64,000 nt of DNA from Streptomyces sp. RKND-216 (GTDB lineage Bacteria; Actinomycetota; Actinomycetes; Streptomycetales; Streptomycetaceae): positions 3,429,501-3,493,500 of the forward strand of contig NZ_SSBQ01000002.1 in NCBI RefSeq assembly GCF_004795255.1. The letters are read 5' to 3'. The position numbers were made by a program, and so were the translations under genes. Of this stretch, positions 35,448 to 53,998 are shown in pieces. Below the pieces are notes generated by a model. It worked only from the letters and a program-made list of their open reading frames with translations, ran no database searches and was not told the DNA's origin. The stretch's first letter is position 1. Every line of letters begins with the position of its first letter.

Positions 35448-38330
35448 TCACGGTGCCGCTTCCCCGCCTCCACCGGCCACCCGGTGGTGCTCGGCCAGCG
35501 CCTGCCGTGAATCGACGCCCAACTTCCGTATCGCACGGGCCACGTGGTGCTCCACGGTGCGGGGCGAGAGATGCAGCGTCGCCGCGATCTCCCGGTTCGT
35601 CAGGCCGGTCGCGGCCAGTTCCGCCACCTCCGCCTCACGCGGCGACATACGCTCCGCGTACGCCGGTCGTCCCGGTCGTCTGCGCTGTGCGGCTGGCTGG
35701 TGGGCCCGCAGCACGGCCCGTACCCGCGCCGCGTCCCACGCCGCGCCGAGACCGGTCAGAAGCTCCACGCACCGGGCCAGTTCCCCGCCCGCCGCCTCCG
35801 CCTGCGGACGGTTCCGCCACACGGCGCACCGCCCGGCGCCCTCGGCAGTGAGGGCCTCGGCATAGGGATGGGGCAGGCGGGCGAAGGCGGCGCTCGACTC
35901 CCGGTACAGGCGGGCGGCTTCCTCCCACGCACCGTGGCCCGGCTCCCGCCCGGCGGCTCCGGCCTCCCCGGCCGAGTACCCGACGGCGTGGCCGACGTCG
36001 AGCCCGGCGGCGTGCCCGGCGACCGTCACCGCGTGCGCCACGGCTGCGCCCTCCGCGTCCGCCTCCGCCACCACGGCCCGACACCACAGCAGCGCCGCCT
36101 CCGCCCACGGCGCGTCCCGCCCGTCCAGGCCCGCCGCGAACTCCGCCACCATCGCCCGCGCCGGCTCCCGGTGCCCCGCTCTCACGTGCGCCTCGACCGC
36201 CCAGGGCGCGAACCCCGCGGCCCACACCCACACCCCCTTGCGCCGCAGCCAGTCCCAGGACGCCGTCGCCGCCGCGGACGCGGCCTCCGTCCGCTGCCGC
36301 GCCATCAGCAGTCGGATACGCGCGCCCGCCGCCGTCGCCGCCACTGGTGCCTCGAACACCTCGGACGCCGGCGGGTCGTCGTCCGGCAGCCAGTTCTCCG
36401 CCGTGGCCCAGTCGCCCTTGGCCAGCGCGAGCAGGGCGAGCACCACCCGTGCGTCGTTGGCGATGCCGTCCTCCGCGACCAGCCCGGTGCAGCGTTCGGC
36501 CAGACCCGCCCAGCGCCCGGCGAGCCAGTCGCGGACCAGCCCGGTACCGCGCCCGACACGCTCCAGGAACGGTGCCCCGCTGTTCCGGGCCAACGCGACG
36601 CCTTCGTCCAGTAGTTCGTCGGCCCGCCGGTAGTGGCCCAGGTAGACCGCGCCGTTGGCCGTGTTGCACAGGCCGCGCGCCACCTGCTGCCGCGAGGCCC
36701 GGTCGGTGGCGTCCCGGGGAAGCCGGGCCACCAGCGGCCATGCGGCCGGATCGCCCGCGTTCATCAGCACCGTCGCCCGGCACGCGTCCACCGCCGTCAC
36801 GGCGCCGTCGTCCGCCGACGCGGCGGCCGCCTCCTCGGCGCGCCGCAGCCAGCCGAGGTTCTCCTCCAGCGAGGTACCGGGGAAGAACGGATTGGCCAGC
36901 GCCGCCATCGCACGTGCCGCCAGCGCTGGACGTTCCGTCAACTCCTGTGCCGCACGACGGAGTTCGACGCGACCCTCATCGAAGCGCCGCTTCCGGTTGT
37001 GCAGCAGCAGCCCCAGCTCCAGCCGTATCTCGCCCCGGACGGCCCTCGGCAGCGCCGGGTCCTCCACGATGCCGCGCAGCGCCTGGGCGGTGCCCTCCGA
37101 CCGCACCCCGAGCATCGCGCCCCGGGCGAGGGTCAGCGCCAGCCGGCCACGCCGCTCCGCGGGAACGCCCTTCTCCGCCAGCGCCTGCTCCAGCAGGGCC
37201 AGTGCCGCCGTGTCCTCGCGGACCGCCGCCTCGCCCTCGGCGAGGCGTTCGGCCGCGCGCAGCCAGTCCTCCGTACGGCCGCCTCCGCGCCAGTGGCGGG
37301 CGACCGCCGCCCACGGCGCCGGCTCGCGGGCCGCCAGCAGCGCGGCCGCCCGGTGATGCAGCCGCTCCCGCACCGGGCCGGGCAGCACCCGGTACACCGC
37401 CGAGGCGGCCAGCGGCACGGCGAAGCCGTACCTGCCCTGGCCCGTCTCGTGCAGGGCGGCACACCCGAGCGCGGCGACCAGCGCCCGGTGTCCCTCCTCT
37501 TCACCGAGCCCCGCGACGGCCGTCAGGTCCTGCACCCCGGCAGGCTCGCCCAGTACCGCCGCCGCCCAGACCACGGGGTGGTGCGGCGCGTCCAGGGCGT
37601 CGAGCTGGTCGAGCACCGCCTCCGCGAGCCGCACGGGCACGCCCGCCTCGTCCACGTCCTCGGCGGTGAAGTGGTCGCGTACGTCCGCGTGGTCGCGGCT
37701 CTCGTCAGCGTCGCGCAGCATCCGCAGCAGGTCCACCAGCACCTGCGCCACCCCGGCGGAGTCGCGCAGCAGCCGGTTCACGAACTCCTCCGGGCACCGT
37801 TCCGCGCCCAGCACGTCCCCGGCCAGCGCCCGGACCTGCGCCTCGTCCAGCGGCGGCGGCACGTACCGCAGCACCGACAGCTGCGCCGGATAGTTCGCGG
37901 CACCTCCCAGCGGCAGACCGCGCCGGGGCAGCTGTTCGGGCCGGTAGGTGAGCACGGCGGCGAACCGCTGCGGCGGTTCGCGCAGCAGCCCGCGCAGCAA
38001 CCTCAGGGAGTCGTCGTCCGCGTGCTGCACGTCCTCCACGACCAGCAGCAGCGGACGTACCGCGTTCAGCGCTGCCTCCAGGGCCAGGCAGGCGGTCGCC
38101 GCCCGGTGCTCCGCGGCGGGTGGCTCGGCCACGGCCAGCGCACCGGAGGACCGGAAGCGGACGGCCAGCCGCGGCACCGTGCGCGCCTGGGGCAGTTCCA
38201 GCAGCGCCTCGATCAGGTGGCTCTTGCCGGTCCCGGCGGCCCCCTCGACGAGCAGCAGGGCCGGACTCCCGGCGTCCGCGTCGTCGGTCAGCGCCTCGGT
38301 CAGCGCCCGCTCCCACGCCCGCTCGCACAT
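35448..38330 (-). CDS. Large ATP-binding LuxR (LAL) family regulator
   Basis: A 960-residue regulator of the MalT/LAL type. The N-terminal STAND-like ATPase has Walker A GAAGTGKS (about residues 30-37) and Walker B LLLVVEDVQHADD; the middle is a long helical TPR-like region; the C-terminus is a LuxR helix-turn-helix (MSPREAEVAELAATGLTNRE, then TVEHHVARAIRKLGV). These proteins usually activate transcription after ligand and ATP binding, often inside biosynthetic clusters. The nanocompartment operon starts beyond the next gene, so it could be its pathway regulator, but it is separated by a lipoprotein gene and terminators. ATG with GAGGAGC ahead. Confidence 0.9.
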   Translation of the reverse strand: MCERAWERALTEALTDDADAGSPALLLVEGAAGTGKSHLIEALLELPQARTVPRLAVRFRSSGALAVAEPPAAEHRAATACLALEAALNAVRPLLLVVEDVQHADDDSLRLLRGLLREPPQRFAAVLTYRPEQLPRRGLPLGGAANYPAQLSVLRYVPPPLDEAQVRALAGDVLGAERCPEEFVNRLLRDSAGVAQVLVDLLRMLRDADESRDHADVRDHFTAEDVDEAGVPVRLAEAVLDQLDALDAPHHPVVWAAAVLGEPAGVQDLTAVAGLGEEEGHRALVAALGCAALHETGQGRYGFAVPLAASAVYRVLPGPVRERLHHRAAALLAAREPAPWAAVARHWRGGGRTEDWLRAAERLAEGEAAVREDTAALALLEQALAEKGVPAERRGRLALTLARGAMLGVRSEGTAQALRGIVEDPALPRAVRGEIRLELGLLLHNRKRRFDEGRVELRRAAQELTERPALAARAMAALANPFFPGTSLEENLGWLRRAEEAAAASADDGAVTAVDACRATVLMNAGDPAAWPLVARLPRDATDRASRQQVARGLCNTANGAVYLGHYRRADELLDEGVALARNSGAPFLERVGRGTGLVRDWLAGRWAGLAERCTGLVAEDGIANDARVVLALLALAKGDWATAENWLPDDDPPASEVFEAPVAATAAGARIRLLMARQRTEAASAAATASWDWLRRKGVWVWAAGFAPWAVEAHVRAGHREPARAMVAEFAAGLDGRDAPWAEAALLWCRAVVAEADAEGAAVAHAVTVAGHAAGLDVGHAVGYSAGEAGAAGREPGHGAWEEAARLYRESSAAFARLPHPYAEALTAEGAGRCAVWRNRPQAEAAGGELARCVELLTGLGAAWDAARVRAVLRAHQPAAQRRRPGRPAYAERMSPREAEVAELAATGLTNREIAATLHLSPRTVEHHVARAIRKLGVDSRQALAEHHRVAGGGGEAAP

Positions 38331-38959: not shown

Positions 38960-39007
38960 CGGCGGACGAAAGGGGCGCGCGCGTGGCGCGGCCCCTTTCG
39001 TCCGCCG
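38960..39007. terminator. Perfect 17-bp terminator at the end of the nanocompartment operon
   Basis: Arms 38960-38976 and 38991-39007 are exact reverse complements with a 14-base loop, between the converging lipoprotein and MFS genes. It should end the long minus-strand operon. Confidence 0.82.
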
Positions 39008-39034: not shown

Positions 39035-40237
39035 CTACGCGCGGGCGCGTGCCGCGGCCGTCCTGCCGGCCAGCAGCGACCCCAGCGCCGCCACCGAGGC
39101 GGCGGCCAGGACCGCGGTGTAGCTGAACTCCGCGAGGACGCCGCCCAGCAGTCCGGCCACGCCGACGCCGATGTCGAAGAACGACGTGACCGCCCCCAGC
39201 GCGGCACCGCGCTCGTTCTCCGGGGCGGCGTCGATGGTGATGAGGGCCAGCGCCGGGTACAGCAGCGTGAAGCCGCCGCCCGCGATCAGCGCGCCGAGCG
39301 CCGCGACCCACAGCGAGGGCGCGAACGCGATCAGGGCGAGGCCCGCCGCCTCCACGAGGGCCGAGATCAGCACCACCCGCAACGCGCCCACCCGGTCCGG
39401 GATGCGCCCGGCGAGCACGCGGACCGTGACGTACGCGGCGCCGAACGCGGACACCAGGACCGAACCGTCGGCGATGTCGCGGGCGGTCATCGCCAGTGCC
39501 CCGAAGCTCACCAGCACGCCGTAGCCGAACGAGCCGCACAGCAGGGAGACGCCGGGCAGCACCGCGGCGCGCGGCAGCAGCTTCGCGGACACCTGCGCGC
39601 CGCGTGCGATGCGGTCGGTCAGGAGGCACACCACGGCGAACGCGACCGCGGGCAGCACGGCCACCGCGATCCACACCGCCGTGAACGAACCGGCCCGGTA
39701 GACCACTTCGCCGAGGATCGGGCCGACGGCGAACCCGGTCCACATGGCGAGGCCGTAGAAGCCGACGATCTGGGCGCGCCGGTCCTGCGGGGCGAGACCG
39801 ACCGTCCACAGCGAGCCCGCCATGAACAGCAGGGCCTCGCCGAGACCCAGCAGGAACCTGCCGGTCCACAGTCCGGCCAACCCCAGCGGCAGCGCGTACA
39901 CGCCCGCGACCATCGTGATGACCAGCGCGCCGAGCATCATGACCTTGCGGCAGCCGTACTGCTGCGCGAGCCGGCCCGCGTACGGGCGTACCAGCAGTGC
40001 CGTCACGCCGGAGACGGCGAAGGTGACGCCCACCTCGAAGGCGGAGCCGCCGAGTTCGCCGGTGACCAGCCGGGGGACGACCGGGATCACCATGCCGACG
40101 GCGGTGAACGTGCACAGCAGTGCGCAGACCAGTCCGACGAAGGTGCCCACCCAGGGCTGCTTCGGGCCCGGCTGCGCGGCGGAGCCCGTACCCGCCGCGC
40201 CTGCCGCCGCGCCCGTGCTCTTCGCGGTGTCAGCCAT
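39035..40237 (-). CDS. MFS exporter of the nanocompartment cluster
   Basis: A 400-residue, 12-helix major facilitator protein. After a 30-residue Ala/Gly-rich N-terminus, helices begin TFVGLVCALLCTFTAVGMVI; the conserved loop 2-3 motif reads GRLAQQYGCRKVMM and helix 5 carries GFAVGPILGE (antiporter motif C-like). It likely exports the pathway product or a related drug. It is the last gene of the operon; its ATG lies inside the shell-protein gene (8-bp overlap), so the two are translationally coupled. Export is inferred from family and position. Confidence 0.88.
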   Translation of the reverse strand: MADTAKSTGAAAGAAGTGSAAQPGPKQPWVGTFVGLVCALLCTFTAVGMVIPVVPRLVTGELGGSAFEVGVTFAVSGVTALLVRPYAGRLAQQYGCRKVMMLGALVITMVAGVYALPLGLAGLWTGRFLLGLGEALLFMAGSLWTVGLAPQDRRAQIVGFYGLAMWTGFAVGPILGEVVYRAGSFTAVWIAVAVLPAVAFAVVCLLTDRIARGAQVSAKLLPRAAVLPGVSLLCGSFGYGVLVSFGALAMTARDIADGSVLVSAFGAAYVTVRVLAGRIPDRVGALRVVLISALVEAAGLALIAFAPSLWVAALGALIAGGGFTLLYPALALITIDAAPENERGAALGAVTSFFDIGVGVAGLLGGVLAEFSYTAVLAAASVAALGSLLAGRTAAARARA

Positions 40238-41078
40238 GTCGGACGCCCCCCTCCGGCACGACGTGGAAGAAGTGGGTGGGCAGCTGGACCGCGACGCCCT
40301 CGTACACCTCGGCGCACACGGCGGTGCCGGGCCGGTCGAAGGTGCCGGCCGGGGGCTGGGCCACCTTCATCACGGACCGGCCGGACTCCAGCAGCCGGGC
40401 GGCCATGGAGAAGTCGCCGACCAGCGCGCAGCCGGGTGCGACGTGCCGGTTGCGGCAGATCTTGACCTTCTCGCGCGCGAGGTCGTCGAGCACGCTGCCG
40501 GAGCCGACCAGTTTCCCGTAGTAGTCGACCGGGTTGACGACCATGGCGTGTCCGGTGCCGCCGGTCTGCTCGATCTCGTCGAATGCGGCGAGCAGCCCGG
40601 AGACGTACGAGCCGCGGTAGGGCAGTTCGGCCACGTCGGGGTGGTCCACCACGTCCAGGGTGAGGGCGCGGTTCTCGGCGGTGCCGAGCCGCACCATCAG
40701 GCGGCGGTCGATGAACTGGACCAGGCTCTCGGGGTGTTCGGCCAGGCCGTCGGGTATCTGCACCCAGCCGGTGATGGGCCGCAGCCGGTACTCGGCGAGG
40801 TCGAAGCGGAACGCGGCCTCGCGCAGCGCCGCCGCGGTCCCGGGCTGGTACGGGCGGGTCTCGAACCAGCCGCGGACGGTGTCCCCGGCGACCCGCTGGT
40901 GTTTGAAGAGGTTGCGGGTGGTCAGGCGCGGCCGGTCCTCGACGGGCTGGAAGGCGTCGCTGAGCGTGTAGTCGAACCACACCTCCGCCTCCGGGCCGTG
41001 GTCGAGGTAGGCGCGGGCGAACCGCTCGCCCGGGGACAGGGCAGTCGCCTTCGGGTCGGTCTCCTGCACGGTGGTCAT
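40230..41078 (-). CDS. HK97-fold encapsulin-like shell protein (natural-product/family 3 type)
   Basis: A 282-residue protein with the layout of HK97-type capsid/encapsulin subunits. An extended arm region (about 65-102) is followed by the spine helix (IPDGLAEHPESLVQFIDRRL, about 108-127), then the A domain with MVVNPVDYYGKL (179-190), the hallmark CALVGDFSMAARLL (217-230), and P-domain strands AEVYEGVAVQLPTHFFHVV (256-274). These correspond to the conserved vNPxd and lvGDf features of the fold. No phage genes surround it; instead it sits inside a biosynthetic operon between a sulfotransferase (22 bp upstream) and an MFS gene (8-bp overlap). It would self-assemble into a nanocompartment. The ATG at 41078 has GAGGA 8 bases ahead; 41084 and 41093 are alternatives. 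Fold call is by eye but strong; function is inferred. Confidence 0.8.
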   Translation of the reverse strand: MTTVQETDPKATALSPGERFARAYLDHGPEAEVWFDYTLSDAFQPVEDRPRLTTRNLFKHQRVAGDTVRGWFETRPYQPGTAAALREAAFRFDLAEYRLRPITGWVQIPDGLAEHPESLVQFIDRRLMVRLGTAENRALTLDVVDHPDVAELPYRGSYVSGLLAAFDEIEQTGGTGHAMVVNPVDYYGKLVGSGSVLDDLAREKVKICRNRHVAPGCALVGDFSMAARLLESGRSVMKVAQPPAGTFDRPGTAVCAEVYEGVAVQLPTHFFHVVPEGGVRHG

Positions 41079-41100
41079 GTGCATCGTCCTCACGGTCGTC

Positions 41101-41835
41101 TCAGGTGGTGGTCAGGGCGTGCTCGACGAGCCGCTCGTAGTAGGGCAGGTGGTGGGCGTGGAAGGCGCGCAGCCGCGGGTCGTCGTGCACGGAGGCCGCG
41201 AACTCCTTGACCGGGGCGCGGAAGCCGGAGCTGGCGATGGCGTCGAGGTGCCAGCGGCGGTTCTGTTCCCACTCGGGGCGTTCGCCGGGCTGCCATTGCA
41301 TCGCCTCGGGCCGGAACGGCAGCCCGACGTGCGCGCAGTACGCCCGTACGACCGCCGGCGGGTCGGCGAGCAGCGACTCGGCGGTGAACACCAGGGGGCG
41401 TTCGCCGGTCGTCTTCCACAGGTGGGTGAAGAGCCGCCACTGGTGTTCGTAGCCGATCTCCGCGCAGGCCAGCGAGGGCTTGACGGCGTGGTGCGAGGCG
41501 ATGGTGCGGGCGGGTTCGCGGACGATGAAGGTGTGCCGGAAGGCGGCCACGTCCTCGGGGTGGTCGAAGAGGTGGGCGTACCGGTACTCCAGGGTGTCCT
41601 TGAAGAACACCGGCCCGTGCGCGCCGAGTTCGGCCAGATGCCGGTACAACTCGCCGGGCGCGCGCACGGTCGTCGGACCCGCGCCGCCCGGCGGCGCGGG
41701 CAGCCGCGTCTCGCCGTGGTCGGTGAGCAGGACCATCGGCTCGTGGACGACCGTGACGTCGCCGCGTTCCATCATCATCCGGACGAACGCGGTGGACACG
41801 GCACGCGGGTGCGCCCAGAGAGCGATGACGGTCAC
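41101..41835 (-). CDS. Sulfotransferase-family enzyme
   Basis: A 244-residue sulfotransferase-like protein that would move a sulfo group from PAPS to a hydroxyl or amine. The 5'-phosphosulfate-binding loop is at the very start, WAHPRAVSTAFVRMM (family form xPRSxST); a 3'-phosphate-binding region is FIVREPARTIASHH. The middle has FFKDTLEYRYAHL and HQWRLFTHLWKTTGERPLVF. The start is a GTG at 41835 that overlaps the aldo-keto reductase stop by 4 bases (GTGA). Sulfotransferases are a recurring partner of natural-product encapsulins. Confidence 0.85.
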   Translation of the reverse strand: MTVIALWAHPRAVSTAFVRMMMERGDVTVVHEPMVLLTDHGETRLPAPPGGAGPTTVRAPGELYRHLAELGAHGPVFFKDTLEYRYAHLFDHPEDVAAFRHTFIVREPARTIASHHAVKPSLACAEIGYEHQWRLFTHLWKTTGERPLVFTAESLLADPPAVVRAYCAHVGLPFRPEAMQWQPGERPEWEQNRRWHLDAIASSGFRAPVKEFAASVHDDPRLRAFHAHHLPYYERLVEHALTTT

Positions 41836-42815
41836 ATCGACCACGCGGTCGGCTGCCGGTCCCAGCGGTGCGCGCGCAGCTCCTCCCGCAGCGCCGGGTC
41901 GAGCGGACGCCCGTCCGAGACGCCGAGGTTGGCGGTGACGTGCGCGGAGCGGCGCATGCCGGGGATGACGGTGGAGACGGCCGGGTGGTCGAGGATGAAG
42001 CGCAGCGACAGCTCCGGCAGGCTCATGCCCTCGGGCAGCAGCTTGGCCAGCGCCTCCGCGCGGTCCACGGTCGGGCCGAGGTTCTCCGGGCCGAAGTAGA
42101 CCGCGCGCCAGTCGTCCTCGGGGAAGACGGTGTCGCGGGAAAGCCTTCCGGTGAGGCCGCCCTCGTCGAAGGGGACGCGGGCGATGATGCCGATGTCGTC
42201 GCGCTGCGCCCGGGCGAACAGTTCGTCCTCGGGAGCCTGGTCGAAGAGGTTGTAGATGACCTGCACGACGTCGACCAGACCGGTGTCGATCGCGCGCAGG
42301 ACGTTGGCCGGCTCCCAGCGGTTGACGCTGATCCCGAAGCCGTCGATGAGGCCGTCGGCCTTGAGTTCGGACACAACGCGTTGCCAGCGCTCGTCGTCGG
42401 CCCAACGGTCCTCCCACACGTGGAACTGGAGCAGGTCGATGCGCTCGACGCCCAGATTCTCCAGGCTCTTGTGGACGTACTCGCGGATGTGGCCGGGCGG
42501 GAAGGCGTCGTCCAGTGTGTCGCCGGGGCGCGGCGGCCACTCGCGGTTGAGCGGCGGCACCTTGGTGGCGATGCGCAGCCGCTCGCCGGGGTGGCGGCGC
42601 AGCAGGTCGCCGAGCATCCGCTCGCTGACGCCGCGGCCATAGACCCAGGCGGTGTCGAAGAACGTGCAGCCCTGTTCCACGGCCTGGTCCAGGCAGGCGG
42701 GCGCGGTGTCGTAGTCCCAGCCGGTGAAGCCGCCGGGGCCGCCGCCGATGCCCCACATGCCGTAGCCGATCTCGCTGACCTGCCAGCCGAGCCGGCCCAT
42801 CGTCCTCTGTCGCAC
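41832..42815 (-). CDS. Aldo-keto reductase
   Basis: A 327-residue NADPH-dependent (alpha/beta)8 reductase. Catalytic tetrad residues are seen in order: Asp and Tyr in FFDTAWVYGRGVSE, Lys in IATKVPP, His in DLLQFHVW. The cofactor end is present in LSLRFILDHPAVSTVIPGMR. In this operon it would reduce the aldehyde released by the NRPS-like reductase domain (inference). The GTG at 42815 has AAAGGA 6 bases ahead; an ATG five codons later is possible. A small stem (GGCCTC 42841-42846 / GAGGCC 42857-42862) lies in the 53-bp gap after the NRPS-like gene. Confidence 0.9.
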   Translation of the reverse strand: MRQRTMGRLGWQVSEIGYGMWGIGGGPGGFTGWDYDTAPACLDQAVEQGCTFFDTAWVYGRGVSERMLGDLLRRHPGERLRIATKVPPLNREWPPRPGDTLDDAFPPGHIREYVHKSLENLGVERIDLLQFHVWEDRWADDERWQRVVSELKADGLIDGFGISVNRWEPANVLRAIDTGLVDVVQVIYNLFDQAPEDELFARAQRDDIGIIARVPFDEGGLTGRLSRDTVFPEDDWRAVYFGPENLGPTVDRAEALAKLLPEGMSLPELSLRFILDHPAVSTVIPGMRRSAHVTANLGVSDGRPLDPALREELRAHRWDRQPTAWSM

Positions 42816-42868
42816 GGTCGTTCCTTTCGAGCGGTGGTGTGGCCTCTGGGGTTCCGGAGGCCGGTGTT

Positions 42869-45800
42869 TCAGGAGTGGAGGGAAGGGAGTTCGGTGAGGG
42901 TTCGCACGTAGGCCGCGACCGCTGCGGCCTGCGGCTGCGCAGGGAGGTCCGGGGCGTCGCCGGAGCCGTTCCGGGCGGGATCGTCGCTCAAGCCGTGCCG
43001 GGCGGCGAGGGCGTCGGCGGCGTCGGTGGTGAACAGCGCGGGGTTGTCCACCAGAAGGCCGGTCAGCAGTCGTTCCGCCTCCGCGTCCGTCGGGGTGCCG
43101 GTGGTGTCCTCGGCGGCCAGGTGGCGCCGGGCCGTGAGTATGCCGTGCAGGAGCGGGAGGGGGGAGCCGGGCTCGTCCTCGTCGTCCGCCGCCGCCTCGG
43201 CGACCGCGGCGAGGAACGCGCCGGGCGGCACGCTGCGGGCCGGTGCCCCCTCCGTCACCGGCAGTTCGGCGAAGTCCACGCTCTCGCGCCGGAGGACGTG
43301 CAGCGCGCCAGGGCCGGTGCAGGGGTCCTCGCCGAGAGCGGCGATCAGCGTCGCGGCGACCTCGTCCACCGGTGAGTAGTCGGAGCGCATGGGCACACCG
43401 GGCCGCAGCCCGAGACGGCGGAACGCGGCCAGCAGCAGGTGGGTGAGCGCTTTGGCGTTGGGCGCGCCGTTGTCCGCGGCCGGCATCACCTCGCCCAGCC
43501 GGTACACGCGGGCCGGCATTCCTGCCGCACGCGCGGCCAGCACCAGGCGTTCGGCCACCCACTTGGACCGGCTGTAGCCGCCGGCCGGGCGCAGGGCCGC
43601 CGCCGGGTCGAAGTCCTCGGGCACCGGGGCGTCCTGCCGGGCCGCGTGCCGGTCGAGAACGCCGAGCGTGGAGACGTGGTGGAAGGTCTTGCGGCGCCCG
43701 GTGAGGGCGAACCGCAGCGCCTCCACCGTGCCCAGGACGTTGGCGGGGCGGTGCGCGCGGTAGTCGAAGAGGAAGTTCACGAGCGCTCCGACGTGCAGCA
43801 CGGTGTCGCACTCCGCGGCGTGCGCCTCCCACTCCGCCGTGCGCCAGCCGAAGCGCTGCTCACCCAGGTCGCCCGCCCGCACCTCCAGACGGTGCGCGAA
43901 CTGCTCATCCCAGAGGTCGAGTTCGCGTAGCGTCCGGATCAGCCGGTGCCGGGCGGCGGCGTCGTCAGGGGCGCGTACGACGGCCAGCGCGCGGGCGTCG
44001 GTGGCGCTCAGCAGGCGGTGCACCGCGCGGGAGCCGACGAACCCGCAGGCGCCGGTGACCAGCACCGTTCCGGGGCCGGCGGGGGACACGGGCGCGGTGC
44101 GCGAGGCTGCCGCCGGACGTGCCGCTGCGTCGGCGAGGCCGGGCGGCAGCACCGCGTCCCGTTCCATCAGGGCGTGGTCGTCGGCTCCCGGCCCGGCCAC
44201 CGCGCGGGCACGTTCGGCGAGAGCGTCGGCCAGCGCCTGCGGGGTGCGGTGGGCGTACAGGTCGGCCACGCCCGCCTGGAGCGCGAGGTGTTCGCGGATC
44301 CGCATCACCACCCCGAGTGCGGCCAGCGAGTCGCCGCCGCGGGCCACGAAGTCCTCGTGCACGCCGAAGCCGGGAAGGTCCAGGGCCCGGCCCATCAGGT
44401 GGGCGATCCGCTCGGCGGGCGGCACGTCCGCGCCCTCCGCCAGGTCCACGTCCCATACCGCCGGGAGGGCGCCGGGGCCGTCGTCCAGTTTCTCCTCCAC
44501 CAGTGTCCGCAGCGCCGCGAGGTCCACCTTGCCGTTGTCGGTCAGCGGCAGCGTCTGCAGCACCAGGCAGTGGTGCGGCACGTGAATGCGGGGGAGCGAG
44601 GCGAGGAGGTGCGCCCGCAGCGCGTCCGTGGTCGTGCCGTCCTCGCCGGCGACGGCCACGGCGAGCCGGGTGCGGCCGTTGCGGCGCAGGACCAGGGCCT
44701 TGGCCTGGATGACGCCGGGGCAGCCCTCGGCGCAGGTCTCGACCTCGCCCAGCTCGACGCGGACGCCGGCCACCTTGGCCTGCCGGTCGCGGCGACCGGC
44801 GAAGCGGAGCAGCCCGTCGCCGGTGAACCGGCCGAGGTCGCCGGTCCGGTACAGCCGCGGACCGGGCACGTCCCCCAGGGGGTTGCGGACGAACGCCTCG
44901 GCGGTGCGGGCCGGGTCGCCCAGGTAGCCGGCGCCGAGGCAGGCGCCGCCGATGACGATCTCGCCGATGTCGCCGGCCGGGACCGGGCGGAGGTCCTCGT
45001 CGACGACGGCGGCGTAGCAGTTGTCGATCGGCGTGCCGAGCGGGATGCGGTCGCCGTCGGCGTCGGTCACCCGGTGGAAGACCATGCCGATGGACGCCTC
45101 CGAGGGACCGTAGCCGTTGGTGATCTCCAGTCCGGGGAGCAGGGCGCGCAGGCGGTGCACGGCATGCGGGATGATCTCTTCGCCGCCCACCACGAGGTGC
45201 CGCAGCGACGCGACGCGCCGCAGCTGCGCGGGATCGGCGTCGAGGAGGGCGACCAGCATGCCGAGCGTCGCCGGGACGAAGTCGGTGACGGTGACCTGCT
45301 CGGAGCCGACGGCCTGCACGATGTGCTCCAGGTCCAGGAACTCGCCCTGGTCCGGGATGGCGGTGCGGCCGCCGGTCGTCAGCGGCCACAGCAGCTGCCA
45401 GATCGCCGAGTCGAACGTGTGGCGGCTGTTCTGCAGCACCACCTCCTCGCCGGTGGCCGAGAAGTAGGCGGACATGAAGCGGAAGCGGTTCGCGAGCCCG
45501 CCGTGCACGTTCAGCGCGCACTTCGGGGTGCCCGTCGAGCCGGAGGTGAACACCCCGTAGGCGGGCAGGTCGGCCGGCAGCGGGACCTCCGGGCGGCGCG
45601 GGGTGGGCCGGATGGCGTCCACCGACACCGGCCGGGCGTCGCGTCCGCCGCAGGTCTCGGGCCCGGCGGTGAGCACCGTGCGCGGTTCGAGGGCGGTGAA
45701 GATCGTCCGCAGCCGTTCCTCCGGCCACGCCGGGTCGCAGAGCAGGAACGCGGCACCCAGCTTCATCACCGCGACCATACAGACGGGCAGTTCGAGGCTG

Positions 45801-46048
45801 TTGCCGAGCACGACAGGCACCGCGTCGCGGTGGCGCACCCCCGCTGCACGGAGTTCGGCGGCGAGCCCGTTGGCCAGTTCGTCGAAGCTCCGGTAGGTCA
45901 GGCTGCGGGACACCGGGCCGAGGTGCGTGACGGCGCGCCGCTCGGGCGTGCGCCGGGCCTGGTCCTCGATCAGGGTGACGACGGACGCGTACGGTCCGTG
46001 GTCGACGTGGCGGCCCGCGACGCGGGGAGCGGTGTGGGTGGCGTCCAT
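42869..46048 (-). CDS. NRPS-like A-PCP-R protein (carboxylic/amino acid reductase)
   Basis: A 1059-residue, single-module enzyme. Residues 20-510 are an adenylation domain (A3 FTSGSTGTPK, A5 NGYGPSE, A7 YRTGDL, A8 VAGVRVELGEVE, A10 NGKVD with K507). Residues 545-615 are a carrier domain with S574 in GGDS. Residues 660 onward are a thioester reductase with Rossmann motif TGACGFVG and catalytic YSRSKWVAE. There is no condensation or thioesterase domain, so it should activate one acid and release it reductively as an aldehyde or alcohol. My reading of the specificity positions is D-S-W-D-V-G-G-I-G-K, with an acidic residue at 278; I cannot name the substrate. The last 60 residues are a loose, Ala/Pro-rich tail. 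Confidence 0.92.
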   Translation of the reverse strand: MDATHTAPRVAGRHVDHGPYASVVTLIEDQARRTPERRAVTHLGPVSRSLTYRSFDELANGLAAELRAAGVRHRDAVPVVLGNSLELPVCMVAVMKLGAAFLLCDPAWPEERLRTIFTALEPRTVLTAGPETCGGRDARPVSVDAIRPTPRRPEVPLPADLPAYGVFTSGSTGTPKCALNVHGGLANRFRFMSAYFSATGEEVVLQNSRHTFDSAIWQLLWPLTTGGRTAIPDQGEFLDLEHIVQAVGSEQVTVTDFVPATLGMLVALLDADPAQLRRVASLRHLVVGGEEIIPHAVHRLRALLPGLEITNGYGPSEASIGMVFHRVTDADGDRIPLGTPIDNCYAAVVDEDLRPVPAGDIGEIVIGGACLGAGYLGDPARTAEAFVRNPLGDVPGPRLYRTGDLGRFTGDGLLRFAGRRDRQAKVAGVRVELGEVETCAEGCPGVIQAKALVLRRNGRTRLAVAVAGEDGTTTDALRAHLLASLPRIHVPHHCLVLQTLPLTDNGKVDLAALRTLVEEKLDDGPGALPAVWDVDLAEGADVPPAERIAHLMGRALDLPGFGVHEDFVARGGDSLAALGVVMRIREHLALQAGVADLYAHRTPQALADALAERARAVAGPGADDHALMERDAVLPPGLADAAARPAAASRTAPVSPAGPGTVLVTGACGFVGSRAVHRLLSATDARALAVVRAPDDAAARHRLIRTLRELDLWDEQFAHRLEVRAGDLGEQRFGWRTAEWEAHAAECDTVLHVGALVNFLFDYRAHRPANVLGTVEALRFALTGRRKTFHHVSTLGVLDRHAARQDAPVPEDFDPAAALRPAGGYSRSKWVAERLVLAARAAGMPARVYRLGEVMPAADNGAPNAKALTHLLLAAFRRLGLRPGVPMRSDYSPVDEVAATLIAALGEDPCTGPGALHVLRRESVDFAELPVTEGAPARSVPPGAFLAAVAEAAADDEDEPGSPLPLLHGILTARRHLAAEDTTGTPTDAEAERLLTGLLVDNPALFTTDAADALAARHGLSDDPARNGSGDAPDLPAQPQAAAVAAYVRTLTELPSLHS

Positions 46049-46112
46049 CCGTCATCTCTCTTGCCAGAGGGGGAACCGAGGGGCGTGCGTGCTGCTGCGG
46101 TGGTGTGGACGG

Positions 46113-47264
46113 TCAGCGGACGGGCGCCGCCAGGGACCGGCCGGGCGCGAGTGCGGGAGTCAGGGGCGCCGTCGCGGCCGGCGGGGTGTTTCCGGCGGCC
46201 AGCGCGGCGAGCAGTGCGCCGACGGCCGGGGCGGTCTGGATGCCGTAGCCGCCGAGTCCCGCGAGCCAGAAGAACCCGGGTGCGGCAGGGTCCTCGCCGA
46301 GCACCGGGGTGTCGTCGACGACGGATGTCCGCAGTCCGGCCCAGGTGTGGCCGACCCCGCGGATGCGCAGGTCCACGGCGGCGTGGAACCGTTCGACGGC
46401 GATGGCCACGTCCAGGTCGTCGGCGCGCACCCGCCCCGCCGGGTCCGCCACGGGGGTGCTGTCGCACGGCGAGAGCAGCAGGCCGCCCGCCTCGGGCTTG
46501 GCGTAGAAGGTGTCGGCGACGTCGGTGACCATCGGCCATGCGGACGGCCCGGGATCGCCGGGCGGATCGGGGAGCGTCACCAGCGCGGCCGTGCGACGGG
46601 TGCTGCGCAGGCCCGCGGGCGCCACGCCCGCCGTCTGCGCGACCCGGTCCGCCCAGGCCCCGGCCGCGTTCACCAGCACCGGAGCGGCGTACACGGCCTC
46701 GTGCGGCCCGCCGGTGCGCACGTGCCAGAGCCCGCCGACGCGGGTCGACTCCCGTACGGGTGCCCGCGTCACGACGCGGCCGCCGCCCGCCCGCAGGCCG
46801 CGCAGGAAGAGCTGGTGGGTGGCGTCCACGTCGATGTCGCAGGCACCGGGCTTGTACAGCACCCGGTCGAACGCGTCCCGCCTCAGGACCGGGCAGAGCC
46901 GCTGCGCCTCGTCGGGTGTCAGTTCTACCACCGGGCGTTCGGCCAGGGCGCCCGCCGCGTGGGCCTGTGCGAACGCGTCGGCCGTGTCCGGCGATCCGAG
47001 CGCGAGGACTCCGCGGGGGCGCAGCAGCGGTGTGGTGCCCGTGCCGTGGGAGGCGTAGAACGCGCGGGAGGCCGTGGTCAGGGTGCGGACCGCCGGGCCG
47101 CCGAAGTACTCGGAGTACAGCGCCGCCGAACGCCCTGTTGCGTGCATGCCAACCGAGGCTTCGGCCTCCAGCAGGGTGACCCGCCCGGAGGCGCTCAGGA
47201 AATAGGCGGCCGCCGCCCCGGCGATGCCGCCCCCGACGACCAGGAAGTCGCTGCTGTCACTCAC
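46113..47264 (-). CDS. FAD-dependent oxidoreductase (D-amino-acid oxidase/DadA type)
   Basis: A 383-residue flavoenzyme, first gene of the operon. The dinucleotide-binding motif opens the protein (DFLVVGGGIAGAAAAYFLS), then ARxG-like HATGRSAALYSEYF, and the C-terminal FAD motif GLGGYGIQTAPAVGALLAAL. The family oxidises amines or amino acids to imines, with O2 or a quinone as acceptor. The GTG at 47264 is used because the fold starts immediately after; the long upstream in-frame extension is leader. Residues 356-383 form an extra Pro/Ala-rich tail (ending APGRSLAAPVR) beyond the normal fold, a possible shell-targeting tag. Confidence 0.88.
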   Translation of the reverse strand: MSDSSDFLVVGGGIAGAAAAYFLSASGRVTLLEAEASVGMHATGRSAALYSEYFGGPAVRTLTTASRAFYASHGTGTTPLLRPRGVLALGSPDTADAFAQAHAAGALAERPVVELTPDEAQRLCPVLRRDAFDRVLYKPGACDIDVDATHQLFLRGLRAGGGRVVTRAPVRESTRVGGLWHVRTGGPHEAVYAAPVLVNAAGAWADRVAQTAGVAPAGLRSTRRTAALVTLPDPPGDPGPSAWPMVTDVADTFYAKPEAGGLLLSPCDSTPVADPAGRVRADDLDVAIAVERFHAAVDLRIRGVGHTWAGLRTSVVDDTPVLGEDPAAPGFFWLAGLGGYGIQTAPAVGALLAALAAGNTPPAATAPLTPALAPGRSLAAPVR

Positions 47265-47311: not shown

Positions 47312-47371
47312 GCCTGTCAACTGAGCCTGTCAATTGAGCGGGGAGTGTAGGAGAGACGTTCGGGTGTGGCA
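47312..47371 (-). promoter_or_regulatory. Candidate promoter and tandem operator of the nanocompartment operon
   Basis: On the minus strand a -10-like TACACT (47344-47349) lies 16 bases after a weak -35 TGCCAC (47366-47371). Immediately downstream are two tandem 13-bp repeats, GCTCAATTGACAG and GCTCAGTTGACAG (47314-47339), which would lie at or just after the start site, where a repressor could act. Each repeat also contains TTGACA. Confidence 0.45.
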
Positions 47372-47548: not shown

Positions 47549-48118
47549 TCACACGCCGCCGGTCGACCGCCCGGCGGGCCCGGCCATCTCGCGGGCCGCT
47601 GCCAGTGCCAGGTGCCACGGATACTCCTGAGGGCGCGCCTCGCCGGGAGCCTTCGGCACGAAGCCGTCCTTCCCGCCATAGAGCATGCGCACGCCCGCCC
47701 CGCGCAGGGTCTCGACGCTGCGCCCGAACTGCGGGTGCGTCGCGTACGCCGCGTTGACGCACGGCAGCACCGCCAGCGGCCACCGCTTGCCGACCGCCTC
47801 GGCGACGTACGCGGCCACGAAGTCCGGGGTGAGGCCGAGCGCGTAGGTGTTGACGCCGTTGAGCGTCGCCGGCGCCACCACGGCCACGTCCGCGTCCGGC
47901 CACAGCGCCGTCTCGTCCGGGCGGCGCAGTGCGCTGCGCACCGGACGTCCCGTCAGTTCGGCCAGTCCGTCGACCTCGTCCGCCAGCCAGCCCCGCGCCG
48001 TGGGCGTCAGCCCGAGGCACACCTCCCACCCGGCGCGCTGTGCCTCCCGCACCACGTCCGCCACGCCCAGCACGGGCGGAGCCGCACACCCCAGCAGATA
48101 GAGCACCTTCGCGTCCAT
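47549..48118 (-). CDS. Flavoprotein of the HFCD (PPC-decarboxylase-like) family
   Basis: A 189-residue flavin-binding protein of the homo-oligomeric Cys-decarboxylase superfamily: VLYLLGCAAPPV at the start, VAVVAPATLNGVNTYALGL (the PxxxN-type flavin/substrate region) and VLPCVNAAYATHPQF (PAMN-like loop with N-A). Family members decarboxylate phosphopantothenoylcysteine or peptidyl-cysteine (LanD). It is not the housekeeping Dfp/CoaBC because it lacks the synthetase half. It is upstream of, and in the same direction as, the nanocompartment operon but about 280 bp away, so membership is uncertain. Confidence 0.82.
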   Translation of the reverse strand: MDAKVLYLLGCAAPPVLGVADVVREAQRAGWEVCLGLTPTARGWLADEVDGLAELTGRPVRSALRRPDETALWPDADVAVVAPATLNGVNTYALGLTPDFVAAYVAEAVGKRWPLAVLPCVNAAYATHPQFGRSVETLRGAGVRMLYGGKDGFVPKAPGEARPQEYPWHLALAAAREMAGPAGRSTGGV

Positions 48119-48178
48119 CGGCCCACCCCACCACACCCGAGCAGCGCGCCGAGAACCGTCATGAAAAGCTGACGAACT

Positions 48179-48652
48179 ATGAGTGACTCTCCGCACGTAC
48201 CCGGTGACGCGGACGACAGAATGCTGCTCGCCCAGTTACGCCTCGACCCCTCCCACGACGACGCGTGGCGCCTCCTCACCGCCACCGCCCGGGACTTCGC
48301 CGCCCAGCCGCAGGCGGACGGCGACACCTGCTGGGTGCAGAGCACCCGCGGCTCCGACGGCGTCGTGACCGTCGGCTACCCCGAGTACAGCGCCCGCGTG
48401 CAGCGTGCCTGCCGGGCCCTCTCCGACGTCGGCGCTGTCACCCCGGCCTACTCCTGGATGCAGCGACGTCCTCCGGCCCTCCCCGACGACGGCACGCCAC
48501 CCGGCGCCGCCGACGCCGTCCGCCTCGCCACCACGATCATCCGCGGCGAACGCTTCTGCGACGGCACCATCGGGCAGGCCGTCGAACGCGGCACCCTCCA
48601 GGCCGTCCTCACCTCCCTGGCCGCCTGGTACGACGCCCGCCGGTCCGCATAG
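48179..48652 (+). CDS. DUF6508-like protein
   Basis: A 157-residue soluble protein. The C-terminal half has AADAVRLATTIIRGERFCDG, IGQAVERGTL and SLAAWYDAR, which I associate with DUF6508; function unknown. Leu20 is encoded by TTA (48236-48238), so translation should need the bldA leucyl-tRNA in Streptomyces and be delayed until development. It is divergent from the flavoprotein gene with only 60 bp between starts. Confidence 0.7.
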   Translation: MSDSPHVPGDADDRMLLAQLRLDPSHDDAWRLLTATARDFAAQPQADGDTCWVQSTRGSDGVVTVGYPEYSARVQRACRALSDVGAVTPAYSWMQRRPPALPDDGTPPGAADAVRLATTIIRGERFCDGTIGQAVERGTLQAVLTSLAAWYDARRSA

Positions 48653-49866: not shown

Positions 49867-52800
49867 CTACGGGACGACGACCTCCTCGATCTGCACACTG
49901 CCCGCGCCCGTCGTGGTGCCCCGCGCGTTGACCAGCTGCACCTCACCGAAGAAGGTGCGGCCCTCTGGTGCGTCGCCGGCCACCACGACCTCCGCGTCGA
50001 CGGTGGCGGACTCGCCGTTGCCGAGGGCGACGGTCCGGTTCTCGTCGACCTTCACCTCGCCGAGTGCGGAGGAGAAGTAGACGTCGCGGTAGTCGAACGC
50101 GGTGCTGCCGGCCGGCACGGAGTATCCGTCCACGGTGATCGTGTACGTGCCCGCCTCCGGACTCAGCAGCGTCACCGACTCCTCCGAGTCGCCGTCGGCG
50201 TCCGAACCGACGACCTCACCGTCGAGGGAGACGCTCAGGTCCAGGTCGGCGCCGGTGTCGGAGGTGGAACCGATCACGACGTCCACGCGCGAGACGCCCT
50301 CGCCGATGACGAGAGTCCTCTCCTGGGACTCGCCGTCGGAGATGGTGGGACGCTCCTGCCGGGCGGACCCCAGCTCGCCGCCTCGCAGCGAGCCGTCGAC
50401 GGCCCCGAACTCGTTCGTGACCTCCCACTCGACCGGAGCAGGGGTCCCCACCTCGGCCTCGGGAAGCGTCTGCACCGCGGGGTCGAAGGTGGTGCCCAGC
50501 GCCATCGCGGTCAGGGTGAACGGGTTGTTCAGCCGCGGCGAGGTGCGCCGTGCCTCGACCTCGAACTCCCAGACGCCCGGAAGCGGTTCCTCGTAGGAGC
50601 GCAGGTCGGGACGGCAGGTGTTGTCCGGGTTGTCATAGTTGTTGTAGCAGTAGACCGTCGACGTCGGATCGGCGGGGAGACCGTAGGGGTTGATCGCGAC
50701 CCAACGGGTCTGGCTGTTCTTCCTCAGGCCGCTCATCGCGACCTCGAGCGTCTTCGCGCCCTCGGGCACGGTCACGAAGTACGACCGCGTGCCGTTGCGC
50801 TGCACCGACCCGCGCTCCTGCACGGCGTAGGCCGGGGTGACCTGGTCCTCCGCCGCGACGACGGTCGCGAGGATGTGCTTGTCGACGCCCTCGGTGCGCT
50901 CGTCGTCCAGGGTGAGGGAGGCACTGTGGATGCCCGCCCGCTTCGCCTTCGCGCGGAGCTTCACGGAGACCGGCTCGTTCAGCGGCAGTGCGATCTCGTC
51001 GTCGCCGACCAGCCGGAAGGTGCCGTCGTCGTTGCTCAGGCCGAGTTCGTGTTCCACCGGCCGGACAGGACCGCTGGTGCGGGTGATGTCGACGGTGTAG
51101 GTGCGGCGTTCGCCGACGGTGAGACCGCCCTCGCGGTCGTAGAGGCCGCTGCCGAAGCCCGGCTCCTTCAGGAAGCCGGACAGCGCCGTGTCCACCGGCG
51201 CCTTGACCGTGTACGCGTGGGCCGTGGCGCCGCGCCTGATGGACTTCCAGGCGTCCTCGACGTCGATGAGGCCCGCACCCTGCTCGTACGCCTGCCGGCC
51301 CTTGATGGTGTCGGCCGTGCTGGTGAGAGCGGTGCGCAGGCTGAGAGGGCTCAGCTCGATACCGCGCCGCTTCGCCGCCGAGATCAGCAGCGCGGAGGCG
51401 CCCGCCGCCTGCGGGGAGGCCATCGACGTGCCCTGGAACATGCCGTAACCGGGCGGCAGGTCGTAGCCCGCCTCGGGGACCGGCTGGCCGGGCTGCCAGC
51501 TCGGCACGGTGTTGACGGAGGCGCCCGGAGCGGCGATCACCGGGGTGAAGCCACCGTCCTCACGCGGTCCGCGGGAGGAGAAGGGCATCATGTCGTACTT
51601 CGTCTTCACCCTGGAGCCGTAGTTGGCGGCCCACGTCTCCTTCGAGACCGACGCACCGACGCTGAGCACCTTGTCGGCCAGCGAGGGGTCGCCGATGGTG
51701 TTGGCGCCCGGACCGCTGTTCCCCGCGGAGATCACCAGTTGCACGCCGTAGGTGTCGATGAGCCGGGTGTAGAGCTCGGCGCGTGCGTTGTTGCCGTCGT
51801 TCAGCGCCGGCAGACCGCCGATCGACATGTTCACGATGTCGACGCCGCGCTCGGTGACCAGATCGATCATGCCCTCGGTCAGTGCGACGCTCGTGCAGCC
51901 CCCACTCCACGAGCAGGCGCGCGAGGAGACCAGCTTCGCGCCGGGGGCCGCGCCGTCCATCTCGCCACCGAACAGGCCGTTGGCCGCCGTGATACCGGCG
52001 ACGTGGGTGCCGTGCGCGGACTCCACGACGCCGATGTTGACGAAGTCGGCCTTCTTCCCGACCCAGTCGCCCCCGTAGGGGTCCATCGGGACGTCCTTGC
52101 GGATCTCCACGACGAACGGGATGCGCTCGGCGATCTCCGTGTTCGGGTCGTCCTCGCCGAACCAGCCGATCTGGAAGCCGTCCTTGTACGGCTTCATCGC
52201 CTTCTGGTCGCCGAAGTTCCCGTCGTCGTCGAGGTCGACGCGCACCGTGCCGGTCGCGGGCTCGTACAACACGCCCCAGCGGTCGGTGGTGTCACCGTCC
52301 CGGTTGAGGTCGCCGGCCATGTCGCCGCCGGTGGTCACCGACTCCGAGAAGCGGCTGATCTGGTACGACCCGGCGGGCGCGGACCACGTGCGGTCCGCGT
52401 ACTCGAACGTCGGGCCGGAGACCGAGGTGACCATCGGGCGCCACGTGCCGTCACCGTCGATGATCGGGTCGGTCGCGGTCACCCAGTCGACGATCTTCCG
52501 CTCGCCCGTGGTCGTCTTCTGCAGCGCCGGGTGGCCGAGGTCGACGCCCGAGTCGAGAACGCCGATCGTGACGCCGCGTCCGTCCGCCCTGGGGTTGTCG
52601 TCGACGAAGTCGACGGCGCCGGTCTCGGCGGCGGGCTGGTACGGGTTGTCGGCGGGGGTGTCCTCGCCCGGGCCGGGCTGGGACCCCCGCTTGCCGTTGT
52701 TCGCGCCCTTGGCGCGGTCGGCCTCCGGCGCCGGATCGGGCAGCGGGATCTCCTGGAGCAGGTCGATACCCACCACGTCCGACAGCTTCTTCGCCCGGTC

Positions 52801-53178: not shown

Positions 53179-53425
53179 AGGCATCCTCAGTTCAGAACTT
53201 CCCTGTCCGGCGGTCCGGAGCCGGATCGCTCGCACTTTCGTCCATGGGACGTATGTTGGGGAAGAAGGCGCCCATACCGTAATGGGGTCGTAACCCGGTG
53301 CTGGGGCGCCCAACGCCTTTTCGGTACCGACCGGTTCGGTGACGAGGCTCGGCTGCGGCGAGCCCCGGCCCGTCCGGATCAAAATGGATGGCCGGGGGCG
53401 AGTCTGACGCGGCAGGATGCTCCGC

Positions 53426-53998
53426 ATGACGCTGCCCACCCCGAAGCTGCACACCTCCCGGCTCCGGCTGCGGCCGTTCACCGACGCCGACGCGGCGCCG
53501 CTCTACACGCTGCACAGCAACGCCCGCGTGCTGCGTTACTGGGACTCCCCGCCGTGGACCGAACCGGCCCGCGCCCAGCGCTTCCTCGCGACCTGCCGGA
53601 CGATCGAGGAGGAAGGCACGGGCGCGCGCGTGGCCGTCGACCGCGTCTCCGACGGCGCGTTCATCGGCTGGTGCGGCCTGTCCGACTGGAACCCGGACTT
53701 TCGTAGCGCGTCCCTGGGCTACCTCTTCGACGCAGCCGCGTGGGGCCACGGATATGCCACGGAGACCGCCCAGGCCGTCCTGCAGTGGGCGTTCGACGCC
53801 CTGGACCTGAACCGCGTCCAGGCCGAGGCCGACACCCGCAACGTGGCGTCCGCGCGGGTCCTGGAGAAGCTCGGCTTCGTCCGCGAAGGCACCCTCCGCG
53901 AGGACTGCGTCGTCAACGGCGAGGTCTCCGACTCCTGGGTCTTCGGCCTCCTCCGCCGCGAATGGCACCCGACGGCCACGCCGACGGCCGGCCGTTAG
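53426..53998 (+). CDS. GNAT-family N-acetyltransferase (RimJ/RimL-like)
   Basis: A 190-residue acetyl-CoA transferase. It begins TSRLRLRPFTDADAAPLYTL; the acetyl-CoA-binding region is WGHGYATETAQAVL and the C-terminal signature is NVASARVLEKLGFVREG. Members acetylate ribosomal-protein N-termini or small molecules. The ATG at 53426 was chosen because AGGA lies about 9 bases ahead; an ATG at 53417 is too close to that site. Confidence 0.9.
   Translation: MTLPTPKLHTSRLRLRPFTDADAAPLYTLHSNARVLRYWDSPPWTEPARAQRFLATCRTIEEEGTGARVAVDRVSDGAFIGWCGLSDWNPDFRSASLGYLFDAAAWGHGYATETAQAVLQWAFDALDLNRVQAEADTRNVASARVLEKLGFVREGTLREDCVVNGEVSDSWVFGLLRREWHPTATPTAGR

What the first reader, a model, noticed from the sequence alone, without database searches (positions are those of the whole stretch)
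39035..47264. Compact biosynthetic operon built around a nanocompartment shell protein
Seen: six minus-strand genes with tiny gaps or overlaps (64, 53, -4, 22 and -8 bp) encode a D-amino-acid-oxidase-type flavoenzyme, an A-PCP-R protein, an aldo-keto reductase, a sulfotransferase, an HK97-fold protein and an MFS exporter, ending at a perfect 17-bp terminator. Established: computational surveys have proposed a natural-product class of encapsulins (family 3) found in biosynthetic clusters with sulfotransferases and NRPS/PKS-type enzymes; cargo and products are essentially uncharacterised. Inference: this is such a system in a minimal form, with one-module chemistry and its own exporter.
Basis: partly seen in the sequence, partly recalled or inferred. 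Interest (0 to 1): 0.95.

Follow-up and report, generated by a model that had tools for sequence, protein, structure and literature searches.

The report
Protein-shell operon, likely aziridine-making
A Streptomyces chromosome carries a six-gene operon that pairs a protein related to virus shells with enzymes predicted to activate an amino acid with sulfate, which would likely yield a reactive aziridine for the shell to contain and a pump to export.

Summary

New here: a sulfotransferase lies on the shell's strand in 72 of 72 family 3 loci examined, across four gene sets; 14 of 72 also carry sulfate-activation (PAPS) genes, the window does not. Shell-free relatives of the A-PCP-R/AKR/sulfotransferase set exist, with nearly the same A-domain code and no flavoenzyme. 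Sulfating amino alcohols is a published aziridine route (review passages).

Best reading, inferred: amino acid, amino alcohol, O-sulfate, aziridine, with the shell containing a reactive step. Cargo, product and shell assembly are untested, and a co-evolution test did not favour the sulfotransferase as the shell's partner.

The parts
46113..47264 (-). DauA-like FAD-dependent amino acid oxidase/dehydrogenase (383 aa)
   Evidence: PF01266; closest solved relative D-arginine dehydrogenase DauA, E 6.3e-78; residues equivalent to R222, Y249, R305 kept in 31 of 31 rows
42869..46048 (-). A-PCP-R protein: adenylation, carrier, thioester reductase (1059 aa)
   Evidence: PF00501, PF00550, PF07993; code DSWDVGGIGK, variants V/I and G/A only, in 32 of 32 rows with data; GGDSL and YSRSK motifs
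41832..42815 (-). aldo-keto reductase (327 aa)
   Evidence: PF00248, 171.5 bits; DTAWVYG, ATKV, FHVW motifs
41101..41835 (-). sulfotransferase (244 aa)
   Evidence: PF19798, 48.6 bits, cut-off 23.2; AlphaFold model pLDDT 88.0 finds sulfotransferases by Foldseek, best E 2.1e-5, TM 0.44-0.51
40230..41078 (-). family 3 encapsulin shell protein, HK97 fold (282 aa)
39035..40237 (-). MFS exporter (400 aa)
   Evidence: PF07690, 133.9 bits; relative directly downstream of the shell in 13 of 34 loci of this class
38960..39007 (.). inverted repeat, perfect 17-bp arms, 14-base loop, no T-run

Best explanation
This is a family 3 (natural-product) encapsulin operon that is predicted to reduce an amino acid to an amino alcohol, sulfate it and let the sulfate be displaced likely into an aziridine, with the shell predicted to contain a reactive step and the MFS pump predicted to export the product. 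Shown: gene content, predicted HK97 fold, family 3 model match, and constant linkage of such shells with a sulfotransferase. Inferred, step by step: the A domain loads one amino acid (an Asp in the pocket suggests a basic or polar side chain; the amino acid is not named); the R domain releases it as an amino aldehyde; the AKR makes the 1,2-amino alcohol; the sulfotransferase turns the hydroxyl into a leaving group; the neighbouring amine displaces it. The DauA-like flavoenzyme keeps the residues that hold an alpha-carboxylate, so it likely acts on an amino acid, before the carboxyl is reduced. It is found with the shell and not in the five shell-free sets, so it and the sulfotransferase are the two best cargo candidates; which is inside, if either, is open.
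For: Family 3 shell. Sulfotransferase on the shell's strand in 72 of 72 distinct loci, 68 within 1 kb, over gene sets as different as A-PCP-R/AKR, amino-carrier-protein/transketolase, DegT/NRPS and a transaldolase set, against three sulfotransferase genes in the whole 5.61-Mb genome, one of them this one. PAPS-supply genes in 14 of 72 loci. Amino-carrier-protein loci match in gene content the azinomycin route, whose sulfated amino alcohol closes to an aziridine (review passages). A review states that sulfotransferases generate aziridines after sulfating hydroxyls near amines (passage). AKR, sulfotransferase and A-PCP-R relatives in shell-free loci share the code DSWDxGxIGK, one with CysD and CysN beside it. 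An MFS gene in 32 of 34 loci of the class.
Against: No PAPS-supply gene in the window. Shell-free AKR/sulfotransferase/A-PCP-R sets show that this chemistry does not need a shell. Partial correlation of pairwise distances is -0.06 for shell and sulfotransferase, 0.20 for shell and flavoenzyme, 0.40 for shell and A-PCP-R. No enzyme shows a recognisable targeting peptide. No dedicated aziridine synthase was identified; AziU3/U2 was not searched for, as its sequence was not at hand. The sulfate could simply stay on the product. The Myxococcus and Mesorhizobium classes of family 3 are not in the sample.
Confidence: 0.42

Rival explanations
1. The shell sequesters a reactive aldehyde: A-PCP-R and AKR are the cargo or dock to the shell, as the 2021 survey proposed for family 3 in general, and the sulfate is only a tailoring step.
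For: The survey proposes sequestration of aldehyde or ketone intermediates (PMC8346489, passage). A-PCP-R and AKR are constant in this class; of the pairs with the shell, A-PCP-R has the highest partial distance correlation, 0.40.
Against: The A-PCP-R/AKR pair occurs without a shell in five loci. Family 3 loci of other classes have no A-PCP-R/AKR pair of this kind but do have a sulfotransferase. A-PCP-R is the longest protein, so its distances are the least noisy, which raises its correlations with every gene.
Confidence: 0.25
2. The operon makes a stable sulfated amino alcohol: no aziridine forms, the shell holds the sulfotransferase or the flavoenzyme for other reasons (peroxide, cofactor or product inhibition), and the pump exports the sulfate ester.
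For: The survey expects sulfated hydroxyl groups in family 3 products. Sulfotransferase constant in 72 of 72 loci. The flavoenzyme goes with the shell in this class.
Against: The two published precedents that share gene content, by review passages, use the sulfate as a leaving group. A flavoenzyme relative is not found in the amino-carrier-protein and transaldolase loci that also have shells.
Confidence: 0.22
3. The shell gene is a domesticated capsid remnant that no longer forms a compartment and acts, if at all, as a scaffold.
For: No family 3 chain was found in the solved-structure set by the single sequence, and assembly cannot be tested here.
Against: HK97 architecture predicted with confidence over residues 15-278; 54 invariant columns in 36 relatives; no match in phage or plasmid records or PHROGs.
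Confidence: 0.08

Closest known systems
Family 3 (natural product) encapsulin systems, Andreas and Giessen 2021 (PMC8346489; passages and outline seen)
   Same: HK97-fold shell in a biosynthetic cluster with sulfotransferase and NRPS-type enzymes; mainly Streptomyces and other actinomycetes; NCBIfam encap_f3 match.
   Different: The passages seen do not mention an aldo-keto reductase, exporter, PAPS supply or aziridine. This operon adds one-module A-PCP-R plus AKR chemistry, a DauA-like flavoenzyme and an MFS pump. The paper's supplementary figures could not be seen, so its class for this operon is not known to me.
Sulfation-based aziridine formation (azinomycin/vazabitide AziU3/U2 route; sulfotransferase route of Yue et al. 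2020, recalled as ficellomycin)
   Same: Works alike if the reading is right: an amino alcohol is sulfated and the neighbouring amine displaces the sulfate (review passages). Shell-free loci with relatives of AKR, sulfotransferase and A-PCP-R, one with CysD/CysN, two with an argininosuccinate-synthase-like gene.
   Different: A capsid-like shell and a DauA-like flavoenzyme are added; no PAPS genes in the window; product unknown. That L143, L144 and L147 are ficellomycin-like is recalled, not tested.
Family 1 encapsulins such as Myxococcus EncA
   Different: 11% identity in that alignment; no recognised targeting peptide on the enzymes of this operon; cargo unknown.

Membership tests
Family 3 encapsulin | HK97 fold of the shell protein | tested here: met
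Family 3 encapsulin | Passes the curated family 3 model | tested here: met
   NF041188 324.4 bits, cut-off 180
Family 3 encapsulin | Lies in a biosynthetic cluster, not in a prophage | tested here: met
   Biosynthetic genes in the operon; flanking LuxR-type regulator, flavoprotein, M23 peptidase and subtilase by Pfam; shell has no phage-record or PHROG match. Flanking genes were not scanned against PHROGs.
Family 3 encapsulin | Self-assembly into an icosahedral shell | not testable with these tools
   needs expression and electron microscopy
Family 3 encapsulin | Dedicated cargo loading | not testable with these tools
   no targeting peptide recognised; that does not exclude loading
Sulfation-based aziridine pathway | PAPS-dependent-type sulfotransferase in the cluster | tested here: met
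   PF19798 over cut-off; weak but consistent fold matches to sulfotransferases, best E 2.1e-5. Activity not tested.
Sulfation-based aziridine pathway | Enzymes that set an amine next to a hydroxyl | tested here: inconclusive
   A-PCP-R and AKR are present; that they give a 1,2-amino alcohol is inferred
Sulfation-based aziridine pathway | PAPS-supply genes in the cluster (common, not strictly required) | tested here: not met
   none in the window; present in 14 of 72 related loci. I therefore say it works like this pathway, not that it is a member.
Sulfation-based aziridine pathway | Dedicated aziridine synthase (AziU3/U2 type) | not tested
   sequence not at hand
D-arginine dehydrogenase DauA (flavoenzyme gene) | Carboxylate-binding R222, R305 and Y249 (roles recalled) | tested here: met
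   31 of 31 rows
D-arginine dehydrogenase DauA (flavoenzyme gene) | Acidic residue for the cationic side chain (E87, role recalled) | tested here: not met
   V in 29, A in 1, L in 1 of 31 rows: same family, not a D-arginine dehydrogenase

The most novel reading that the evidence does not exclude
Family 3 encapsulins are containers for sulfate-displacement chemistry: whatever the carbon skeleton, each shell travels with a sulfotransferase that turns a vicinal amino alcohol into an amino sulfate, and the aziridine warhead forms inside or at the shell before the pump sends it out. The operon in this window would be one of the smallest complete versions, small enough to rebuild in a test tube.
Probability: 0.3. 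Interest if true: 0.9.

Novelty: new member of a known kind. Interest (0 to 1): 0.72.

Why it matters
What family 3 shells do is open: the 2021 survey says that the one cluster studied by experiment left the shell's role unknown (PMC8346489, passage), and the literature searches made here listed no later family 3 study. A sulfotransferase at each of 72 examined loci, over four gene sets, gives one simple rule for what the shell serves, and a six-gene operon is small enough for reconstitution. If the aziridine reading holds, a virus-derived compartment would be tied to making an alkylating warhead; I made no search on whether such a case is already known.

Tried and rejected
AKR C-terminal motif HRWDRxPxxWS as a shell-targeting peptide: rejected. 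It is present in 33 of 34 shell-bearing loci (the other, L059, reads N there), but also in the four shell-free A-PCP-R partners whose tail was printed (L096, L097, L143, L144; L147's was not printed), while four AKRs with no A-PCP-R relative found in the fetched DNA end differently (L098, L099, L145, L146).

A-PCP-R C-terminal segment as a targeting domain: not supported; it reads like the end of the reductase domain (judged by eye and from recall).

Distance-correlation (mirror-tree) test for cargo: 29 rows, window included; six loci were dropped by name beforehand (L033, L051, L054, L057, L059, L063). Partial correlations with the shell: A-PCP-R 0.40, flavoenzyme 0.20, AKR 0.03, sulfotransferase -0.06. 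It speaks against the sulfotransferase as a closely co-evolving partner and cannot settle cargo.

Phage-capsid reading: no PHROG, phage-record or plasmid-record match of the shell. Sub-threshold hits of the family 3 model in other genomes were not followed.

Flavoprotein gene upstream (47549-48196) as a seventh operon gene: no relative in the 53 loci, so left out.

A-domain substrate: I recall no exact match to DSWDVGGIGK, so the amino acid is not named.

Does the sulfotransferase also occur alone across the genus: that search did not complete; the AKR searches served instead.

Family 3 work after 2021: searches list all 3, 2 and 1 papers found; one search lists 11 of 13; one search lists 15 of 478, so it shows little. 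Subscription journals and preprints are mostly not held.
Full report
OBSERVATION. Six minus-strand genes run from 47264 down to 39035 with gaps of 64, 53, -4, 22 and -8 bp. Pfam and NCBIfam give a DAO flavoenzyme; AMP-binding, carrier and thioester-reductase domains; aldo-keto reductase; Sulfotransfer_5; encap_f3; MFS_1. The shell has no Pfam match at E 0.5 but scores 324.4 bits on NCBIfam's family 3 encapsulin model, cut-off 180. The inverted repeat at 38960-39007 has perfect 17-bp arms, a 14-base loop and no T-run.

DISTRIBUTION. The genome has 5.61 Mb in two contigs and one family 3 shell. I take it for a Streptomyces because same-genus handles G214, G248 and G391 have contigs of the same lengths as named Streptomyces records. 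16 of 392 genomes of the genus and 9 of 394 of the class pass the family 3 cut-off, this genome counted in both.

NEIGHBOURHOODS. A genome scan with A1 returned 53 loci. In 34 of them AKR, sulfotransferase and shell lie together. A-PCP-R is found in 33 of the 34 (in part in L057 and L059); L054's contig starts at the AKR. The flavoenzyme is found in 30 of 34: L033, L057 and L063 are cut contigs and L059 has runs of N. In L043, L046, L047, L048 and L054 the flavoenzyme lies elsewhere in the locus. An MFS gene is found in 32 of 34: 13 like the window's, after the shell, and 19 of a second type (DHA2-like by my reading); L033 and L063, the two without, are cut. The A-domain code is DSWD(V/I)G(G/A)IGK in 32 of 32 rows with data, window included.

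THE CONSTANT PARTNER. The other 19 loci have shells at 35-41% identity and other gene sets. In the 15 from Actinomadura, Fodinicola and a Streptosporangiales bin there is a transketolase in 14 and LysX in 13, the misses being the cut contigs L070 and L077; kinase, semialdehyde dehydrogenase and M20 peptidase accompany LysX. The 4 Dyella loci have a DegT aminotransferase and an SDR, and L065, annotated in full, also methyltransferase and NRPS genes. All 19 have a sulfotransferase. As a second sample I fetched the 23 other loci over the cut-off from the genus and class searches: 23 of 23 have one. Sulfotransferase: 72 of 72, on the shell's strand in 72, within 1 kb in 68. By two Pfam models the own genome has three sulfotransferase genes, one of them in this operon. 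Homologues of PAPS-supply genes (CysC, CysD, CysN) lie in 14 of 72 loci and not in the window. In L032, of the window's own class, CysD overlaps the end of the shell gene. Pfam agrees for genes of L032, L101 and L107. The amino-carrier-protein loci match in gene content the azinomycin route as a review describes it: kinase, reductase, transketolase, amino alcohol, sulfation, aziridine (PMC9570651, passages).

SHELL TREE. On 72 rows (71 loci and the window; L059 left out as a fragment) the A-PCP-R class is one side of a branch, support 99/97, and the four Burkholderiales loci group within it, which suggests horizontal transfer. Long branches make deeper joins unsure.

SHELL-FREE RELATIVES. Plasmid records of Embleya (L096) and Tistrella (L097) hold an A-PCP-R and AKR pair without sulfotransferase, flavoenzyme or shell in the DNA fetched. 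In the genus 23 of 384 genomes have AKR matches at E 1e-80, 24 places: seven at 81-100% identity, all in family 3 operons; two at 61%; fifteen at 45-47%. In the class 3 of 394 genomes match at E 1e-95, one of them (64%) new. The three 61-64% places (L143, L144, L147) have AKR, sulfotransferase (42-43%) and A-PCP-R (about 41%) and no shell or flavoenzyme in the DNA fetched; L147 is 14 kb of an 18-kb contig. L143 and L144 have an argininosuccinate-synthase-like gene, L147 has CysD and CysN. The code in L097, L143, L144 and L147 is DSWDLGTIGK and in L096 DSWDVGAIGK, so the substrate is probably alike. I recall, from no call, that ficellomycin clusters combine such genes and that their sulfotransferase acts on 2-pyrrolidinemethanol. 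A review cites Yue et al. 2020 for sulfotransferases that generate aziridines after sulfating nearby hydroxyls (PMC12559475, passages); the cited paper is not held.

THE FLAVOENZYME. Its closest solved relative is D-arginine dehydrogenase DauA, E 6.3e-78. Positions equivalent to R222, Y249 and R305 are kept in 31 of 31 rows; E87 is replaced in 31 of 31, and Q336 is L in 31 of 31 (roles recalled). An amino acid other than D-arginine is the likely substrate. No relative was found in five of five shell-free loci or in the amino-carrier-protein and transaldolase shell loci; L121, of the DegT class, has a DAO-family gene next to its shell.

THE SULFOTRANSFERASE. Sequence search against the PDB found none; a profile finds CurM at E 0.0029; a model of pLDDT 88.0 matches sulfotransferases by Foldseek, best E 2.1e-5, TM 0.44-0.51 for the first three. 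These are weak but consistent. The other classes use Sulfotransfer_3 proteins, so the sulfation, not one sulfotransferase lineage, goes with the shell.

MECHANISM. Shown: gene set, predicted fold, linkage. Inferred: amino acid to amino aldehyde (A-PCP-R), to amino alcohol (AKR), to amino sulfate (sulfotransferase), to aziridine by displacement; containment by the shell; export by the MFS pump. Why the shell is needed is not known, since related sets run without it. The 2021 survey proposed sequestration of aldehydes or ketones and expected sulfated products (PMC8346489, passages and outline); PAPS and aziridine do not occur in its main text.

VERDICT. A real member of the family 3 encapsulin kind with the usual content of its class. 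New are the rule that these shells travel with a sulfotransferase, and the link to sulfation-based aziridine formation, which makes the function of these shells testable.

Noticed in passing
window 35448-38330, minus strand: 960-aa regulator with AAA_16 and a LuxR-type GerE domain, just beyond the operon's inverted repeat.
   Followed up: partly
window 47549-48196, minus strand: Flavoprotein-family gene (PF02441) upstream of the flavoenzyme; no relative near the 53 family 3 loci.
   Followed up: partly
window 47312-47333, minus strand: Two copies of TTGACAGGC, 13 bp apart, upstream of the operon's first gene; the only two in the window. Possible operator or promoter element.
   Followed up: no
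window 49867-53481, minus strand: 1204-aa subtilase with a PPC domain.
   Followed up: no
L050, L051: Nonomuraea sp. NEAU-A123 has two family 3 operons with identical shell rows on two scaffolds; Nonomuraea sediminis has two divergent ones (L040, L053).
   Followed up: no
L059: Streptomycetaceae bacterium MP113-05: the closest named relative; its shell is split and the locus has runs of N, probably an assembly fault.
   Followed up: no
L107, L108, L109: Family 3 shell and sulfotransferase with a transaldolase-family gene and CysC, CysD and CysN homologues: a gene set whose product I cannot guess.
   Followed up: partly
L121: Family 3 shell next to a DAO-family gene, an Asp/Glu-racemase-family gene, a RamC/LanC-like kinase-cyclase gene and ABC transporter genes.
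   Followed up: no
L076:3057-5384: A lantibiotic-dehydratase N-terminal domain gene close to an amino-carrier-protein family 3 locus.
   Followed up: no
L047, L048, L054, L057: Burkholderiales family 3 operons group inside the actinomycete A-PCP-R shell clade, which suggests horizontal transfer.
   Followed up: partly
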